Below, piece after piece: positions 29,513-56,215 of a stretch of DNA of 64,000 bases. The notes under the pieces were generated by a model that worked only from the letters and a program-made list of their open reading frames with translations, ran no database searches and was not told where the DNA came from. Within the stretch, counting starts at the first letter, position 1, and every line of letters starts with the position of its first letter. This DNA is from Leptodactylus fallax (Eukaryota; Chordata; Amphibia; Anura; Leptodactylidae). The translations under genes were made by a program, and so were the position numbers. The stretch lies in NCBI GenBank assembly GCA_947044405.1, contig CAMRHE010000012.1, positions 7,746,001 to 7,810,000 of the forward strand, given 5' to 3'.

Positions 29513-31069
29513 CAGTGGAGAAAAAAAAGTATTTAGTCAGCCACCAATTGTGCAAGTTCTCCCACTTAAAAAGATGAGAGAGGCCTGTAATTGACATCAT
29601 AGGTAGACCTCAACTATGAGAGACAAAATGAGAAAACATATCCAGAAAATCACATTATCTGATTTTTTAAGAATTTATTTGCAAATTATGGTGGAAAATA
29701 AGTATTTGGTCACCTACAAACAAGCAAGATTTCTGGCTCTCACAGACCTGTAACTTCTTCTTTAAGAGGTTCCTCTGCCCTCCTCTCATTACCTGTAGTA
29801 ATGGCACCTGTTTGACATTGTTATCAGTATAAAAGACACCTGTCCACAACCTCAAACTGTCACACTCCAAACTCCACTATGGTGAAGACCAAAGAGCTGT
29901 GGAAGGACACCAGAAACAAAATTGTAGACCTGCGCCAGGCTGGGAAGACTGAATCTGCAATAGGAAAGCAGCTTGGTGTGAAGAAATCAACTGTGGGAGC
30001 AATAATTAGAAAATGGAAGACATACAAGACCACTGATAATCTCCCTCGATCAGGGGCTCCACGCAAGATCTCACCCCATGGGGTCAAAATGATCACAAGA
30101 ACAGTGAGCAAAAATCCCAGAACCACACGGGTGGACCTAGTGAATGACCTGCAGAAAGCTGGGACTAACGTAACAAAAGCTACCGTCAGTAACACACTAC
30201 GCCACTAGGGACTCAGATCCTGCAGTGCCAGACGTGTCCCCCTGCTTAAGCCTGTACATATCCGGGCCCGCCTGAAGTTTGCTAGAGAGCATTTGGATGT
30301 TCCAGAAGAGTATTGGGAGAATGTCATATGGTCAGATGAAACCAAAGTAGAACTGTTTGGTAGAAACACAACTCGTCATGTTTGGAGGAGAGTGAATGTT
30401 GAGTTGCATCCAAAGAACACCATAACTACTGTGAAGCATGGGGGTGGCAACATCATGCTTTGGGACTGTTTCTCTGCAAAGGGACCAGGACGACTGATGC
30501 GTGAACATGAAAGAATGAATGGGGCCATGTATCGTGAGATTTTGAGTGCAAACCTCCTTCCATCAGCAAGGGCATTGAAGATGAAACGTGGCTGGGTTTT
30601 TCAGCATGACAATGATCTCAAGCACAACGCCAGGGCAACGAAGGAGTGGCTTCGTAAGAAGCATTTCAAGGTCCTGGAGTGGCCTAGCCAGTCTCCAGAT
30701 CTCAACCCCATAGAAAACCTTTGGAGGGAGTTGAAAGTCCGTGTTGCCCAGCGACAGCCCCAAAATATCACTTCTCTAGAGGAGATCTGCATGGAGGAAT
30801 GGGCCAACTTACCAGCAACAGTGTATGCCAACCTTGTGAAAACTTACAGAAAACATTTGACCTCTGTCATTGCCAACACAGGATATATATCAAAGTATTG
30901 AGATGAACTTTTGTTAATGATCAAATACTTATTTTCCACCATAATTTGCAAATAAATTCTTTAAAAATCAGACAATGTGATTTTCTATATATGTTTTCTC
31001 ATTTTGTCTCTCATAGTTGAGGTCTACCTATGATGTCAATTACAGACCTCTCTCATCTTTTTAAGTGGG
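29513..31069 (+). mobile_element. Tc1 element, 3' terminus missing
   Basis: The left terminus CAGTGGAGAAAAAAAAGT follows TA at 29511-29512. The right side matches the family up to the sequence TTTTTAAGTGGGA near 31069, then stops about 45 bp short of the expected terminus. The element therefore lacks one outer terminal repeat and cannot be mobilised. It sits inside a TTAA-type element. Confidence 0.9.
29879..30901 (+). pseudogene. Tc1 DD34E transposase with a single nonsense codon
   Basis: One frame of 341 codons covers the usual length of Tc1 transposases. It starts [19 protein letters not shown] and ends GYISKY before a stop. The N-terminal paired-like DNA-binding region has a helix-turn-helix ([18 protein letters not shown]). 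The catalytic residues are present: Asp in SDETK, Asp in HDNDLKH, and Glu in PIENLW, with 34 residues between the second Asp and the Glu. The only interruption is a TAG at 30206-30208, where relatives of the family have Gln (a C-to-T change). The HDNDPKH motif reads HDNDLKH here. Because of the stop it is scored as a pseudogene. Confidence 0.9.
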
Positions 31070-45973: not shown

Positions 45974-48167
<2,194 letters not shown>

Positions 48168-48991: not shown

Positions 48992-50492
48992 CAGTGGGGA
49001 AAAAAAAGTATTTAGTCGGCCACCAATTGTGCAAGTTCTCCCACTTAAAAAGATGAGAGAGGCCTGCAATTGACATCATAGGTAGACCTCAACTATGAGA
49101 GACAAAATGAGAAAACAAATCCAAAAAATCACATTGTCTGATTTTTTAAGAATTTATTTGCAAATTATGGTGGAAAATAAGTATTTGGTCAAAAACAAAA
49201 GTTCATCTCAATACTTTGTTATATATCCTTTGTTGGCAATGACAGAGGTCAAACGTTTTCTGTAAGTCTTCACAAGGTTGGCACACACTGTTGCTGGTAT
49301 GTTGGCCCATTCCTCCATGCAGATCTCCTCTAGAACAGTGATGTTTTGGGGTTGAGATCTGGAGACTGGCTAGGCCACTCCAGGACCTTGAAATGCTTTT
49401 TACGAAGCCACTCCTTCGTTGCCCTGGTGGTGTGCTTGGGATCATTGTCATGCTGAAAGACCCAGTCACGTTTCATCTTCAATGCCCTTGCTGATGGAAG
49501 GAGGTTTGCACTCAAAATCTCACGATACATGACCCCATTCATTCTTTCATGTACACGGATCAGTCGTCCTGGTCCCTTTGCAGAGAAAGAGCCCCAAAGC
49601 ATGATCTTGCCACCCCCATGCTTCACAGTAGGTATGGTGTTCTTTGGCTGCAACTCAGCATTCACTCTCCTCCAAACACAACGAGTTGTGTTTCTACCAA
49701 ACAGTTCTACTTTGGTTTCATCTGACCATATGACATTCTCCCAATACTCTTCTGGAACATCCAAATGCTCTCTAGCAAACTTCAGACGGGCCAGGATATG
49801 TACTGGCTTAAGCAGGGGGACACGTCTGGCACTGCAGGAATTGAGTCCCTGGCGGCGTAGTGTGTTACTGATGGTAGCCTTTGCTACATTAGTCCCAGCT
49901 TTCTGCAGGTCATTCACTTGGTCCCCTTGTGTGGTTCTGGGATTTTTGCTCACCGTTCTTGTGATCATTTTGACCCCACGGGGTGAGATCTTGCGTGGAG
50001 CCCCTGATCAAGGGAGATTATCAGTGGTCTTGTATGTCTTCCATTTTTTAATTATTGCTCCCACAGTTGATTTCTTCACACCAAGCTGCTTGCCTATTGC
50101 AGATTCAGTCTTCCCAGCCTGGTGCAGGTCTACAATTTTGTTTCTGGTGTCCTTCCACAGCTCTTTGGTCTTCACCATAGTGGAGTTTGGAGTGTGACTG
50201 TTTGAGGTTGTGGACAGGTGTCTTTTATACTGATAACATTGTCAAACAGGTGCCATTACTACAGGTAATGAGTGGAGGACAGAGGAGCCTCTTAAAGAAG
50301 AAGTTACAGGTCTGTGAGAGCCAGAAATCTTGCTTGTTTGTAGGTGACCAAATACTTATTTTCCACCATAATTTGCATTTTGTCTCTCATAGTTGAGGTC
50401 TACCTATGATGTGAATTACAGACCTCTATCAACTTTTTAAGTGGGAGAACTTGCACAATTGGTGACTGACTAAATACTTTTTTTCCCCACTG
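48992..50492 (-). mobile_element. Tc1 element with both termini (CAGTGGGG family)
   Basis: CAGTGGGGAAAAAAAAGTA at 48992 and its inverted partner ending CCCCACTG at 50492 are each flanked by TA. At 1501 bp it is the only copy of this family here with both outer ends. Confidence 0.93.
49203..50178 (-). pseudogene. Tc1 transposase with one nonsense codon and a 52-bp deletion
   Basis: The start is at 50176-50178 ([14 protein letters not shown]). Codon 57 is TGA (50008-50010) where a relative has CGA (Arg). From 49968 the frame is open through [13 protein letters not shown] and HDNDPKH to PDLNP. A deletion of 52 bp relative to the copy at 10290 lies at about 49350, between two GGGG runs. It removes the coding sequence around the catalytic Glu and shifts the frame; the remaining C-terminus is readable at 49203-49340 in another frame. 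The DD34E triad is therefore incomplete. Confidence 0.9.
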
Positions 50493-50823
50493 TATATCGC
50501 TGAAGCACAGGAAAGGTATGTTTGAAAAGCTTATGCAAGTTCAAGAGTTAATAACTGAAGCCATTACCACATTATTTGGACTTATTATTTTTGACATATG
50601 GCCCACTTTTTGGATCAGAATGCAGCTCAGTATTTCATCTTCTGTGCCCATCCGACTTCTGTACAGAACTGTCAATTTTGTCCTGAATTTCTATCCCCAA
50701 GCCCTTTCCTCTGTCTGTACCTACCTGTATCTGCAACAGCCTATGTAAGCTAAATGTGGCTATCTGCGACTTGTAGAGCTTTGATCAAGAACACAGCTAA
50801 TAAAATACAATGTTCAAATACAT

Positions 50824-51248
50824 TGCGACAACTTGGGGGAATTAATCTCAAATGGCGGCAAACTCCTGGTCCCGACAGCGGTGGTTCGTGGTACTGGGCG
50901 CCGGAGAGATAGCGTTCAGACGGTCCAAGTGTAAAATAAACGGGCTTACGTGCAACATAACAAAACAACAAAAAACCTAGGCCACAGTTAGGGCACTAAC
51001 TGACTCCTTGAGTCCCTAACTAGCCTCTGGGGCAATAAGAAGCTTGACTTAATCTCATTAAGGCCTCGCTGGACCCCAGCCCTCTGGGGACAGACCGACT
51101 CTCTGTCCTCGGCTGGTCCACCATTTCCTGCTTCCTGCAGGATACCCCAGCCTTCTGGAGTTACGCACCCCACCCAAAGGTGTGGCTGAGAGCCTTTTCT
51201 GGCCTGGGCCTGGGTCGCTCAATAGCGCCCTCTGGTTACATACTCACA
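50824..51248 (-). repeat. 3' LTR (minus orientation), poly(A) signal deleted
   Basis: 425 bp, colinear with the 5' LTR except for a 10-bp deletion at about 50945 between two GCTT repeats. The deletion removes the AATAAA present in the other LTR. TG...CA ends are kept. Confidence 0.9.
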
Positions 51249-51250
51249 TA

Positions 51251-51261
51251 CCCTCCCCCTC
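51251..51261 (-). other. Polypurine tract
   Basis: GAGGGGGAGGG on the minus strand, two bases before the 3' LTR; the expected plus-strand primer site of an LTR element. Confidence 0.75.
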
Positions 51262-51283
51262 AGCTCACTACTCATGGGATGAG

Positions 51284-53903
51284 CTACAATGGGACAAGAC
51301 ATCCTATGACGAAGTCCCTCTTCAACCATGTGTGCCTGTCCAGTGGTCCCAATCTCCAGAAGTCCCAATCTGGCGGTCTCTTCTTCCAAATTCCGGTTAC
51401 TCGACATTTCTGGTTTCTCATTAGTTTATCTGCTACGTCAAGATCCTGGCCATTCTGTGCAAAGGCAAGTTTTACTTCATCACCTTCACAATTCACCATA
51501 CAGGGGATCACATCATTTTCATCACATTTCTCACCATAGTCTTCAGCCATCCCATTGCATATCTTTGATTCCTTTAGTGAATAACCGTAAGAATCTTCAT
51601 CTTCTCCTATCATGAATCCACAGGAGCTCAGAGAGCAAATAACAAGTACTTCATGCACATCAATGTCTTTAGAGTATAACTGTTTCACGGGTACTTTTTC
51701 CGTAACCTTTATCTCAAAGCAAACTTTGCCATCACCATCAAGGCTTAGAAGTTTAGGAGACATAGGCTGCTTGCTCTCCTCTTTGTTTGAGATACACAAG
51801 CTCTGTACTGCAATATATTCTCCTTCTGCACGAGGGCCATACAGTACACCCTCACAGAATAGATCACGCTGAACTACATTTTCTGGTACGTCTTTAACAA
51901 CTGCCACATCATATATTGGAATGGTTTCTGTATAATGCTTCCACACCTGTACGGCAGCAGGAGAACCACTTCCATACTCTAGTCTTACCTCCTCTTTCTC
52001 ATACATATAACTTCCTGGAGGCATGTTGCGGTACTGTGATAGATTGCAAGAATTTTCATGCCAACCCCTTTCTGACAGTACAGGTGCTGGAGATATCGTC
52101 ATCTCAACATTCTCCAAGTTATTATCATTCTCTGTGCTAACACCGGAGGACTGGGATACCAAGTTTTCAACATCACAGTTTTTACTGTCAGTACCCAGAT
52201 GCCTTTTGGTTACAGGTTCTGGCTGCCTTAATGTCTCTGCTTTCTCTGCCTCTATGCTAGCAGCTTTCTCCAATTCTAATGCCTTCTGTAGTGCACAAAT
52301 CTCTGATTCCAGCTCCAGAACTTTCTTCATCGCCGCATTTCTCTGAGCAGCCTCTGTCTCAGTTTTTACTAGTGCACCTTGCAGCTCTGATTCTTTAGAG
52401 GTTAACAGGCTCTGCAGCCAGTCTTTCTCAGCTTCTAGTGCTGCCAGCTTTGAAGATAGGGCAGATGCCAACTGTTCAGTATTGGATAAAGACTGCTGCA
52501 ATCGATCGAATTCTTCTCTTTTAGATTCCACTTCGGTTTTTAACTGTTCAATCTGAAAAGTGCGCTCTTCCAACTTTATTTCTGACACATTTTTCTCATC
52601 TTCCATTTGTTTTAGTTTTGTACTAAGGTCAAGCTTCTGACAAGTTTCTTCTTGCAAAAGTTCCTGAGTGTCCTGAAGCTGAGATTCTAGTGTAGAAAAA
52701 TCTTTGGAAAGTTTGATAAACTTGCTGTCTGCTTGAGAAAGAAGCCTTGTGACATTATTCAATTCCACCTGCAGTCCATTTGCCTTCTCTAGTAGTTCTG
52801 CTTGAAACCTGTCCCCTTCTGTGACTTTTAGTTGCAGCACTTGAAGTTGAGTCTCTACTTTTTTGTGACTCTCCTGTAAGGTTTGCACTTTCTGAGCATG
52901 AACAGACGACATCTCCATCAATTCTTTGTCTTTATTTTTCACCAAAAAAGACAATTTCTCTTTATCTTCACAAGATCCTGACAGCGCCCTCTCCAGGCTA
53001 CATATTCTAGCTTTGAGTTCCCTTTCTCTTTGTTCCAGAACTCCAGCTCTGCTCCGCCATTCGTTGATTTCACTATTTAGGCAAACCTGCTTTAGTGCAT
53101 GCAAGTTTTGCTCTGACTGCAATGTCTGCACCACAGATTCTAAATTGCTCTCTTGGTCAGACACCTCCTTCCGCAGCTCTGCAATTTCATTTTCTTTGTC
53201 AGTTAATGCAGCAGAAAGTTTTTCACACTTCCTGACTTGGTTATCCAGACATTCTGACTGACACTGCAAAAATTCACTTCTCTCACGTTTAGCAGTTTCA
53301 AGGTCATCTCTTAATTTTTCAATGACACTTTCTTTGACAATGGAGTCTTGGCCATGCTGCTCCTTTAAATCCTGCAATTGCTTCTCAAGCACTTGCTTTT
53401 TTTCCACACTCTGTAGGACTTTATTAGGTAGAGCGCATTTCATTTCTGCAAACTCTTTCTTAGTGACACAGTCCATTCCAGGCAAACTCAGTACCACATT
53501 TTCACAATGACTAGGATATAAACTCTTTATAGTCTCAAGTTCTTTCTTTAAGGTTCTCTTTTTCTGATACCTCAAGTTGCCATCTCCAATCAGATATTTC
53601 ATCTTCATACATGAACCTGATGGTTTTAATCTCATCTTGAAGCTGCTGCACCATAATATTTTCATCTTTGGCGCTTTCATGCACTCGAGTATGAGACATA
53701 CAGTCAACAGGGACATATTCATTCATAGAACAGAGGTGCTTTAGAAAAACTGAGTCACTCTCATGCAACCCTTTATCTTTACTTGCATTCCACATGCTCT
53801 GTTCCGGGTTTTGTGTCTCTCTGCATTCAGACTTCTGCACTAATAAACCTGTGCATAACTTCTCTGCTTTTTTACAAGCTGAAATTCTCTTTTTCTTGCC
53901 CAT
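51284..53903 (-). CDS. Chimeric coiled-coil + hnRNP U-type SPRY protein of the LTR element (one frameshift)
   Basis: The likely start is ATG at 53901-53903 ([15 protein letters not shown]) with a strong context (A at -3, G at +4). This frame runs to 53535. A one-base insertion near 53540 (in an AAAGAAAG stretch) moves the reading into the frame that stays open to the stop at 51284; the two parts together give about 870 codons without introns. From N to C: a Lys-rich start, a long heptad-rich coiled coil of about 440 residues, a myosin II rod-like stretch inside it (52589-52864), a Ser/Asn/Glu-rich linker, then an hnRNP U-like SPRY segment (51431-51730) and a 48-residue tail unlike hnRNP U. 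The stop lies only about 22 bp before the polypurine tract. No gag, zinc-knuckle or enzyme motif is seen. Function is unknown; it may act as a scaffold or gag substitute, or be a passenger. Confidence 0.85.
51431..51730 (-). other. Segment similar to the SPRY domain of hnRNP U
   Basis: About 100 residues from [20 protein letters not shown] to NGQDLDVA. The phrases [21 protein letters not shown] and ENDVI, in this order and spacing, are those of the hnRNP U SPRY domain, about two thirds identical by eye. The start of the domain and the part after NGQDL are missing, as are the SAP, NTPase and RGG regions of the cellular protein. Several structural residues differ (for example the GWS motif reads CSL), so the fold may be impaired. 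Confidence 0.85.
52589..52864 (-). other. Segment similar to non-muscle myosin II heavy-chain rod
   Basis: About 92 residues from [14 protein letters not shown] to [10 protein letters not shown]. The phrases [32 protein letters not shown] and [16 protein letters not shown] match the MYH9-type rod closely, about 70 to 80 percent identical by eye against my memory of the family. The match is colinear and ungapped, far beyond generic coiled-coil similarity. Flanking residues do not match myosin. Confidence 0.8.
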
Positions 53904-54378
53904 GTTTTAATAACAAGATTACACAATATTCCACAGCAACCTTGGGTTCAACTGGCAGCAACTTTTTTTGCTATCTTCTGCAGTCACATGTATTCAAACA
54001 GTTAACTTATGTGGCACTACAACAACCAGCATTTTCTTCTGTCTTCCACAGAAAACATCAACATGGCACCATAGCCTTTCACATAGACTGTTTGCAGTAT
54101 CCAGCTTCTAAACACATTGCTTACTTTCTTGCCATCAGCAAACACTTCACAGACTTCTGTGCCACAGTATACACAAAGTCCATTCCCTGGATTCCTCTTC
54201 CAGAGTTTTACTTTCACCAGTTTTTACACACACTTTGCTATGTTGCAATTCACTCACCCCTTCCTGGGTTTCTCAGTTGAAATCACAGATTTCTTCCAGC
54301 TGTAGGCCACAATGCACACTTAGCAGTACTGCAGTCACCAACCACTTATCTTCCAGGACTTGCGTGGATCTCTTTACG
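53904..54378 (-). other. 5' leader of the LTR element
   Basis: About 475 bp between the primer-binding site and the first ATG of the chimeric frame. No gag-like ORF; only short ORFs. It may contain the packaging signal of the parent element, which cannot be seen directly. Confidence 0.5.
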
Positions 54379-54396
54379 CCCGAATCCGTAGCACCA
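54379..54396 (-). other. Candidate tRNA primer-binding site
   Basis: On the minus strand TGGTGCTACGGATTCGGG starts two bases after the 5' LTR. TGG pairs with the CCA end of a tRNA. I could not match the rest to a specific tRNA from memory. Confidence 0.6.
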
Positions 54397-54398
54397 TA

Positions 54399-54833
54399 TG
54401 CAACAACTTGGGGGAATTAATCTCAAATGGCAGCAGACTCCTGGTCCCGACAGTGGTGGTTGGCGGTTCTGGGCGCCGGAGAGATAGCGTTCAGACGGTC
54501 CAAGTGTAAAATAAACGGGCTTTATTCAGCTTACGTGCAACATAACAAAACAACAAAAAACCTAGGCCACAGTTAGGGCACTAACTGACTCCTTGAGTCC
54601 CTAACTAGCCACTGGGGCAATAAGAAGCTTGACTTAGTCTCTGTAAATCCTCTCTGGACCCCAGCCCTCTGGGGACAGACCGACTCTCTGTCATTGGCTG
54701 GTCCACCATTTCCTGCTTCCTGCAGGATACTCCAGCCTTCTGGAGTTACGCGCCCCACCCGAAAGTGTGGCTGAGAGCCTTTTCTGGCCTGGGCCTGAGT
54801 CACTCAATAGCGCCCTCTGGTTACATACTCACA
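54399..54833 (-). repeat. 5' LTR (minus orientation)
   Basis: 435 bp, TG...CA on the minus strand. It carries an AATAAA poly(A) signal on the minus strand (TTTATT at 54521-54526). No obvious TATA box was seen. Confidence 0.9.
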
Positions 54834-54837
54834 ACAT

Positions 54838-55489: not shown

Positions 55490-56215
55490 TTATGTCACTT
55501 TCATTAAAGCGAAACAAAATTCTCTGGCAACTTTTAATTTTCTGGCAGTATTTGTTTCATAAATACATTTTGTAATATACTTTATTAACAAATTTTGAAT
55601 CCTTTCTGTCACATCCTGCATGATTTCACTCTTTCCCTTGTTTCTGTATTGAGAGCTCTTCCTGCCTCTCACTGAATGTTACTGTGCATGTGAGTACGGG
55701 CTGTATAATATGTAGCGAAAATGAGGGTGGGGAAGGGTCACTTCAAACAGTTTTATCTTGGACATTATAAAACGTACAAATTTTCTTTTGGTTTCATGTG
55801 AAAGAGGAAATTCTCTTATTATAGTGCTATCTAAATTATTTCCAGAGATATTACTGGCTGAAAACACAGATTGGGATTTTTATATATATTATACAGCTGC
55901 ATATAAATATTCTAATTCTAATTTCAGCCAGTTTGTACATTTTATAATGTCTGAGATATAACAGTTTGATGTGACCCTCCCCCACACTCATTTTCACTAC
56001 ATGTTAAATAGCTCCATACTTCCATACACAGTAACATTCAGCGAGAGGTAGGAACAGCTCTTAATACAGAAACAAGGGAAGAGTGCAAAAATGCAGGATT
56101 TCACAGAAAGGGTCCAAAATGTGTTAATAAAACATATCACAAATTGTATTACTGACACAAATACTGCCAGAAAATGAAAAGTTGTCTGAAAGTTTAGGTA
56201 CTCTTTAAATAGTTA
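55490..56215. repeat. Palindromic element of about 725 bp
   Basis: The left arm (about 55495-55800) and right arm (about 55915-56205) are imperfect inverted copies. Paired phrases include CTGGCAGTATTTG with CAAATACTGCCAG, CTTTCCCTTGTTTCTGTATT with AATACAGAAACAAGGGAAGA, and TGAATGTTACTGTG with a CACAGTAACATTCA copy. It carries no transposase ORF and fits a long fold-back MITE; the ends and target duplication are not certain. Confidence 0.7.

What the first reader, a model, noticed from the sequence alone, without database searches (positions are those of the whole stretch)
50824..54833. Non-autonomous LTR retrotransposon whose only gene is a fusion of cellular-like sequences
The sequence shows matched LTRs, ACAT target duplication, a TGG primer-site candidate and a polypurine tract, all consistent with minus-strand transcription. 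The interior lacks every retroelement enzyme but holds an almost intact, intron-less frame of about 870 codons in the same strand. Retroelements that transduce host genes are known (for example in plants and in acute retroviruses), but I know of no described vertebrate LTR family with this coiled-coil plus SPRY cargo. That it is undescribed is inference.
Basis: partly seen in the sequence, partly recalled or inferred. Interest (0 to 1): 0.92.

Follow-up and report, generated by a model that had tools for sequence, protein, structure and literature searches.

The report
Frog jumping element with patchwork gene
A frog genome holds a jumping element, with about 1,800 matches to the start of its only gene, and that gene is a patchwork of pieces of at least four of the frog's own genes, likely stitched together when the element was copied from RNA to DNA and likely kept readable because its protein helps the element spread.

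Summary
The finding is real, and larger than described. Window 50824-54833 is one copy of a non-autonomous LTR element (LTRs 95.0% alike, ACAT duplication). The start of its frame occurs 1,831 times in this genome, control 0. Six of six copies that I picked from the first 100 places printed have LTR at both ends and this cargo. The frame joins pieces of MYH9, HIP1R, bucky ball (Buc/Velo1) and HNRNPU behind a coiled coil of unknown origin. Two copies join ten HNRNPU exons without introns. Copies differ by whole modules; the Buc module has microhomology at both edges. Length changes of 30 bp or more that are shared between loci are nearly always in frame (7 of 8 and 7 of 7 by two references; 11 of 11 in the merged hand tally), private ones often not (6 of 17, 4 of 13). 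Shared missense variants are depleted in the first 1.3 kb. So the protein is likely selected during spread; its job is inferred. Against: the Buc piece and shared 1-5 bp indels show no such constraint; no helper was found. Closest precedent: maize Bs1.

The parts
50820..50823 (.). target-site duplication ACAT (left)
   Evidence: sequence
50824..51248 (-). 3' LTR
51249..51263 (-). polypurine tract
   Evidence: read from the sequence
51284..51421 (-). C-terminal tail and stop of the window frame; no named relative
51422..51733 (-). hnRNP U piece, about 103 residues of the SPRY region
   Evidence: 80% identical to Eleutherodactylus hnRNP U 275-377
51734..52228 (-). bucky ball (Buc/Velo1) piece, residues 124-288 of the L. 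fuscus protein
   Evidence: 82% identical
52232..52387 (-). second myosin-II tail piece (MYH9 1082-1133-like; MYH11 nearly as good)
52388..52588 (-). HIP1R coiled-coil piece
   Evidence: edges
52589..52876 (-). first MYH9 tail piece (left edge approximate)
52877..53903 (-). N-terminal coiled coil of unknown origin; the frame slips between 53535 and 53722
53904..54398 (-). untranslated leader with TGG primer-site candidate at 54394-54396
54399..54833 (-). 5' LTR
54834..54837 (.). target-site duplication ACAT (right)
   Evidence: sequence

Best explanation
This is a multi-copy LTR retroelement with no recognised enzyme genes of its own, whose only reading frame is a mosaic of pieces of frog MYH9, HIP1R, bucky ball and HNRNPU, likely built by repeated reverse-transcriptase template switching onto host mRNAs and likely kept in frame because its protein acts in cis for the element. 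Shown: paired LTRs and 4-bp duplications, copy number, the four donor genes, intron-free HNRNPU, Buc pieces in one clade, module differences between copies, microhomology at both Buc edges, in-frame bias of shared large length changes. Inferred: an unidentified helper supplies Gag, protease, reverse transcriptase and integrase; element RNA is packaged with host mRNAs, at least once in the female germ line since bucky ball is known as an oocyte gene; jumps at short shared stretches add host pieces and delete others; mostly products that keep one frame spread. Most likely the coiled-coil protein self-assembles and binds the RNA it was translated from, as a stand-in Gag or as a scaffold that brings that RNA into the helper's particles.
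For: LTR pairs 95.0-97.6% alike and 4-bp duplications in 4 of 4 copies with both LTRs aligned. 1,831 ORF-start matches, control 0; 6 of 6 copies from that list LTR-to-LTR with cargo; flanks of 27 loci unrelated. MYH9 at 278.5 bits, HIP1R, Buc 82% and hnRNP U 80% identical. L056 and L057 join ten host HNRNPU exons without introns. 13 Buc pieces one clade, 94/88, 91% of bootstrap trees. Buc edges share TGATGGTG and AAG.CAG.CAGA among class I copies, host gene and class II copies. Shared changes of 30 bp or more in frame 7 of 8 and 7 of 7 against private 6 of 17 and 4 of 13 (p 0.030 and 0.005). Missense pN/pS 0.81, 0.59, 0.42 for variants in 1, 2-3, 4+ of 30 copies, p 0.028; stops 27, 3, 0. hnRNP U part 1.20 to 0.35, p 0.024.
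Against: Shared indels of 1-5 bp are in frame only 3 of 23 (reference L018, leader included) and 1 of 7 (reference L048). The Buc piece shows no purifying selection among copies (1.02 to 1.53, p 0.41) and the whole 3' part no significant change (p 0.21); dN/dS to the host exon is 0.45-1.5 over 29 copies. By region the N-terminal coil alone is not significant (p 0.16). No helper with these LTRs, no primer tRNA and no donor of the N-terminal coil were found. The presence or absence of HIP1R and of the first MYH9 piece could be gain or loss. No expression or function data.
Confidence: 0.68

Rival explanations
1. The cargo is a passenger: the frame stays open only because early stops would expose the element RNA to decay, or because the captures are recent, and the protein does nothing.
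For: Buc piece without constraint; dN/dS to host 0.45-1.5; shared 1-5 bp indels not in frame; captures recent, dS 0.03-0.11.
Against: Missense variants depleted among those in 4+ copies even with stops left out (0.81 to 0.42, p 0.028) and in the hnRNP U part (p 0.024). Frame kept across many large module changes.
Confidence: 0.24
2. The Buc piece targets the element's RNA or protein to germ plasm, and this is what the cargo is for.
For: Buc/Velo1 organises germ plasm (PMC6219760, PMC5080839, passages); the piece is present in the copies scored.
Against: The first 121 Xvelo residues are required for efficient germ-plasm localisation and 122-779 localises only very weakly (PMC3827131, section read); the captured piece starts at about 122-124. 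No constraint on it. L055-L057 lack it.
Confidence: 0.06
3. One rearranged locus or an assembly artefact, or a host gene spread by ordinary duplication.
For: Any single joint could arise by DNA rearrangement.
Against: 1,831 matches, unrelated flanks at 27 loci, LTRs with 4-bp duplications, introns removed.
Confidence: 0.01

Closest known systems
Bs1 retroelement of maize (PMC13317346, passages seen; primary papers not read)
   Same: LTR element with segments of three host genes forming one chimeric frame.
   Different: Plant; other donor genes (proton ATPase, xylan endohydrolase, beta-1,3-glucanase). Here a vertebrate, four named donors plus unidentified modules, about 1,800 ORF-start matches, and copies with different module sets.
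Acute transforming retroviruses with captured cellular genes (recalled, no call)
   Same: Host mRNA sequence captured into an LTR genome that needs a helper.
   Different: Those are infectious viruses with oncogenes, often fused to Gag; this is an old-and-young germline family with no recognised viral gene and cytoskeletal, germ-plasm and RNA-binding donors.
LTR elements with additional or captured ORFs, e.g. bdelloid rotifers and rice/sorghum (PMC5408684, PMC7264820, PMC3726574; listing and abstract starts only)
   Same: LTR elements that carry extra or captured genes.
   Different: In the rotifer and plant additional-ORF abstracts the extra frame stands beside gag-pol; here the mosaic is the only frame.
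Buc/Velo1, hnRNP U, HIP1R, MYH9 proteins
   Same: Donors of the pieces.
   Different: Only parts are present, in one fused frame and a new order.

Membership tests
LTR retroelement | paired LTRs with TG..CA ends | tested here: met
LTR retroelement | short target-site duplication | tested here: met
   4 bp in 4 of 4 copies examined for it: window, L013/L040, L014/L041, L019/L042
LTR retroelement | dispersed copies at unrelated places | tested here: met
LTR retroelement | primer site complementary to a tRNA | tested here: inconclusive
   TGG two bases after the LTR; two variants among copies; no tRNA identified
LTR retroelement, autonomous | gag, protease, reverse transcriptase, integrase | tested here: not met
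   no such Pfam domain in the window frames or in frames from L054, L057, L060, L061; other loci were not profiled
Bs1-like element with several transduced host genes | pieces of several host genes in one frame between LTRs | tested here: met
Bs1-like element with several transduced host genes | pieces derive from spliced RNA | tested here: met
   HNRNPU: ten exons joined in L056 and L057; not tested for HIP1R and MYH9; Buc lies in one exon
Acute transforming retrovirus | captured oncogene in an infectious defective virus | not testable with these tools
   no infectivity data; donors are not classic oncogenes (recalled)
Processed pseudogene | single-gene cDNA with poly(A) and no LTRs | tested here: not met
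   LTRs and several genes
Buc/Velo1 germ-plasm organiser | N-terminal localising region, first 121 residues of Xvelo | tested here: not met
   captured piece begins at about residue 122-124; PMC3827131 section

The most novel reading that the evidence does not exclude
A vertebrate retroelement that works as a gene-assembly line: it repeatedly adds pieces of oocyte mRNAs to one selected frame and trims them, and has replaced its own Gag with a coiled-coil RNA scaffold built from host genes.
Probability: 0.35. Interest if true: 0.95.

Novelty: new variant of a known kind. Interest (0 to 1): 0.87.

Why it matters
Capture of several host genes into one retroelement frame is documented for maize Bs1 (PMC13317346, passages). 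The library searches that bear on this (listings and abstract starts only) showed me no animal case of several host genes in one LTR-element frame, which is no proof that none is printed. Here many copies with different module sets lie in one genome beside the donor genes, so the gains, losses and joints of a new gene, and selection on it, can be measured directly. It also makes testable why an element without enzymes should need a protein.

Tried and rejected
Germ-plasm targeting by the Buc piece was my first reading; demoted after PMC3827131 and the lack of constraint. Introns as the cause of length differences between copies: rejected, since the extra stretches read on in the coding frame as MYH9 and HIP1R. 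N-terminal coil as Gag or a known host protein: no convincing hit in Pfam, in PDB sequences, or among proteins of 447-1421 aa; longer donors were not searched. A further module of up to about 150 residues before the Buc remnant in L060, L063, L064 and L065: no hit. Primer tRNA: not identified. Helper: the leader search, a protease family search and an LTR-edge pattern did not complete; the top of the LTR query is filled by cargo copies. HIP1R host exons: not completed. Rfam: no match in the window. One search counted four copies twice over short overlaps (35 rows, 31 copies); one search repeats it with one row per copy and stops left out, with nearly the same result.
Full report
OBSERVATION. 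Window 50824-54833 is a complete LTR element on the minus strand. The LTRs (435 and 425 bp) are 95.0% alike over 421 aligned bases (K2P 0.052), run TG..CA, and are flanked by ACAT. A purine tract and a TGG site lie where expected; no tRNA was identified. The interior has two overlapping open frames of 122 and 812 codons with one slip between them. Pfam finds Myosin_tail_1, HIP1 clathrin-binding and SPRY in them, and no retroelement domain.

THE FAMILY. Its own bucky ball gene is 92.8% identical in protein to that of Leptodactylus fuscus over 629 residues, so the host is a Leptodactylus or near it. The LTR query scored 40 of 5,734 candidates and the cargo query 40 of 2,997. Four listings give 144 distinct places on 102 contigs (the host genes and some weaker places were left out of that tally, and not every place was examined). 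The 29-base start of the frame, with up to 2 mismatches, occurs 916 + 915 times, 0 in the control. Flanks of the 27 loci that could be tested share no match. Three further copies have LTR pairs 97.6, 96.8 and 96.8% alike and 4-bp duplications. From the first 100 places that one search printed I fetched six: 6 of 6 have LTR matches at both ends and cargo between them; 4 of 6 (L060, L063, L064, L065) also hold stretches that my queries do not explain, up to 1.2 kb in L065. Pfam finds no retroelement domain in the frames given to it from L054, L057, L060 and L061. The helper was not found.

THE CARGO. From N to C terminus the window frame holds a coiled coil of unknown origin, a MYH9 tail piece, a HIP1R coil piece, a second myosin-II tail piece that precedes the first in MYH9 order (32.8 bits to MYH9 1082-1133, MYH11 31.0), Buc 124-288, part of the hnRNP U SPRY, and a short tail. 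Other copies hold longer pieces: MYH9 1309-1522 at 278.5 bits, a long run of HIP1R with small gaps, and in L055-L057 a long hnRNP U piece; in L057 it shows a SPRY match to the end of the profile and the start of the AAA domain. In L056 and L057 that piece aligns to ten exons of the host gene on contig C200 with the introns gone; at one place the gap also takes out coding sequence, the same gap that many copies share. Its 5' edge lies within a base of a splice acceptor, its 3' edge inside an exon. The Buc piece lies inside one host exon.

ORIGIN. A tree of Buc pieces from 13 copies (16 tried; three did not pass the stop and length filter), the host gene and 13 other frogs puts the copies in one clade (94/88; 91% of bootstrap trees) inside a group with the host and L. 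fuscus (99/94). Within it L. fuscus joins the copies before the host does (96/71, very short branch), so the tree does not say whether the capture is younger than the split from L. fuscus. dS between copies and the host exon is 0.03-0.11 over 29 copies, two of them a tandem pair. A passage of PMC12638755 puts L. fuscus and L. pentadactylus about 27 million years apart; I used no rate of my own.

HOW THE MOSAIC CHANGED. Class I (L055-L057): coil, second myosin piece, long hnRNP U, no HIP1R, no Buc. Class II (L044-L048, L051, L053, L054): with HIP1R and Buc, without the first MYH9 piece; L049, L050 and L052 lack that stretch through larger gaps. Class III (window, L010-L038 as far as held): with the first MYH9 piece and with shorter HIP1R and hnRNP U. 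Five of the six copies keep only the second half of the Buc piece, four of them behind an unknown module. At the 3' edge of Buc, class I, the host gene and class II share TGATGGTG where the sequence changes over; at the 5' edge they share AAG.CAG.CAGA. HIP1R lies between two GAGGAA, the first MYH9 piece between two similar stretches. Two jumps of reverse transcriptase between RNAs would leave this. Deletion between short repeats would leave the same for HIP1R and MYH9, so their direction is open. At Buc, class I has 28 other bases in its place; gain of Buc is the simpler reading, not the only one. The host gene shows that the shorter hnRNP U forms are losses.

SELECTION. Against reference L018, shared length changes of 30 bp or more are in frame 7 of 8 times and private ones 6 of 17; against L048, 7 of 7 and 4 of 13 (Fisher p 0.030 and 0.005). 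The one exception reads 377 against L018, which has its own 1-bp loss there, and 378 against most other references. Merged by hand over references the shared events are 51, 54, 378, 399, 798, 324/657, 36/366, 330, 96/429, 159 and 162 bp, 11 of 11 in frame; private ones about 10 of 21, or 8 of 21 if two that differ by reference are moved (the 1,764-bp change of the tandem pair L049/L050 is left out). The shared and private sets use the loci held, not the genome, so some private ones may be shared elsewhere. Shared 1-5 bp indels are in frame 3 of 23 (L018, leader included) and 1 of 7 (L048) times; several lie in the leader or at module edges, but they do not support the claim. In the first 1.3 kb of the frame in 30 copies, missense pN/pS is 0.81 for singletons, 0.59 for variants in 2-3 copies and 0.42 in 4 or more (p 0.028); neither sub-part is significant alone. 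Stops number 27, 3 and 0. Over the 3' part in 31 copies, hnRNP U goes from 1.20 to 0.35 (p 0.024), Buc from 1.02 to 1.53 (p 0.41), the whole from 0.92 to 0.68 (p 0.21). I read this as selection on the frame and on parts of the protein, not on the Buc piece.

MECHANISM. Shown: retroelement anatomy, capture of host RNA for HNRNPU, modular change, frame bias. Inferred: a helper supplies enzymes; captures happen when element RNA and host mRNA are copied together; products that keep one frame spread best. The simplest reason for a non-autonomous element to need its frame is a protein that acts on the RNA it came from. A long coiled coil that self-assembles, as stand-in Gag or RNA scaffold, is my best guess (about one in three). 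Targeting to germ plasm through Buc is unlikely, because the first 121 residues that Xvelo needs are absent (PMC3827131, section 11 read).

KNOWN OR NEW. Maize Bs1 is the closest case (three host genes in one hybrid frame; PMC13317346, passages). The library searches listed no animal counterpart that I recognised; I saw listings and abstract starts only.

Noticed in passing
46878-47894 (+), 49330-50007 (-), 30209-30901 (+): Long frames that look like Tc1/mariner transposases, the first 338 codons long (recognised from memory; frames).
   Followed up: no
55712-55780 and 55932-56000: Inverted repeat with 69-nt arms, 87% complementary, 151 nt apart.
   Followed up: no
L049 and L050 (G000:C137, about 3987782 and 3990575): Two copies 2.8 kb apart with an LTR between them, a tandem array as left by recombination between LTRs.
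   Followed up: partly
leader just after the 5' LTR in L010-L038: Two variants of the primer-site region, TGGTGCTACGGATTCGGG and TGGTGGAGGATGCGGG, which may point to two primer tRNAs.
   Followed up: partly
L060, L063, L064, L065: A further module of up to about 150 residues between the second myosin piece and the Buc remnant, without a match in Pfam or PDB sequences.
   Followed up: partly
L021, after the MYH9 piece: Cargo interrupted by what looks like a non-LTR retrotransposon with an endonuclease frame (recognised from memory).
   Followed up: no
L010: Two LTRs in opposite orientation about 20 bases apart.
   Followed up: no
G000:C59:7329554-7330174 and G000:C19:3875214-3875822: Places matched by the Buc query whose open frame is listed as 1,217 and 1,002 residues long.
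   Followed up: no
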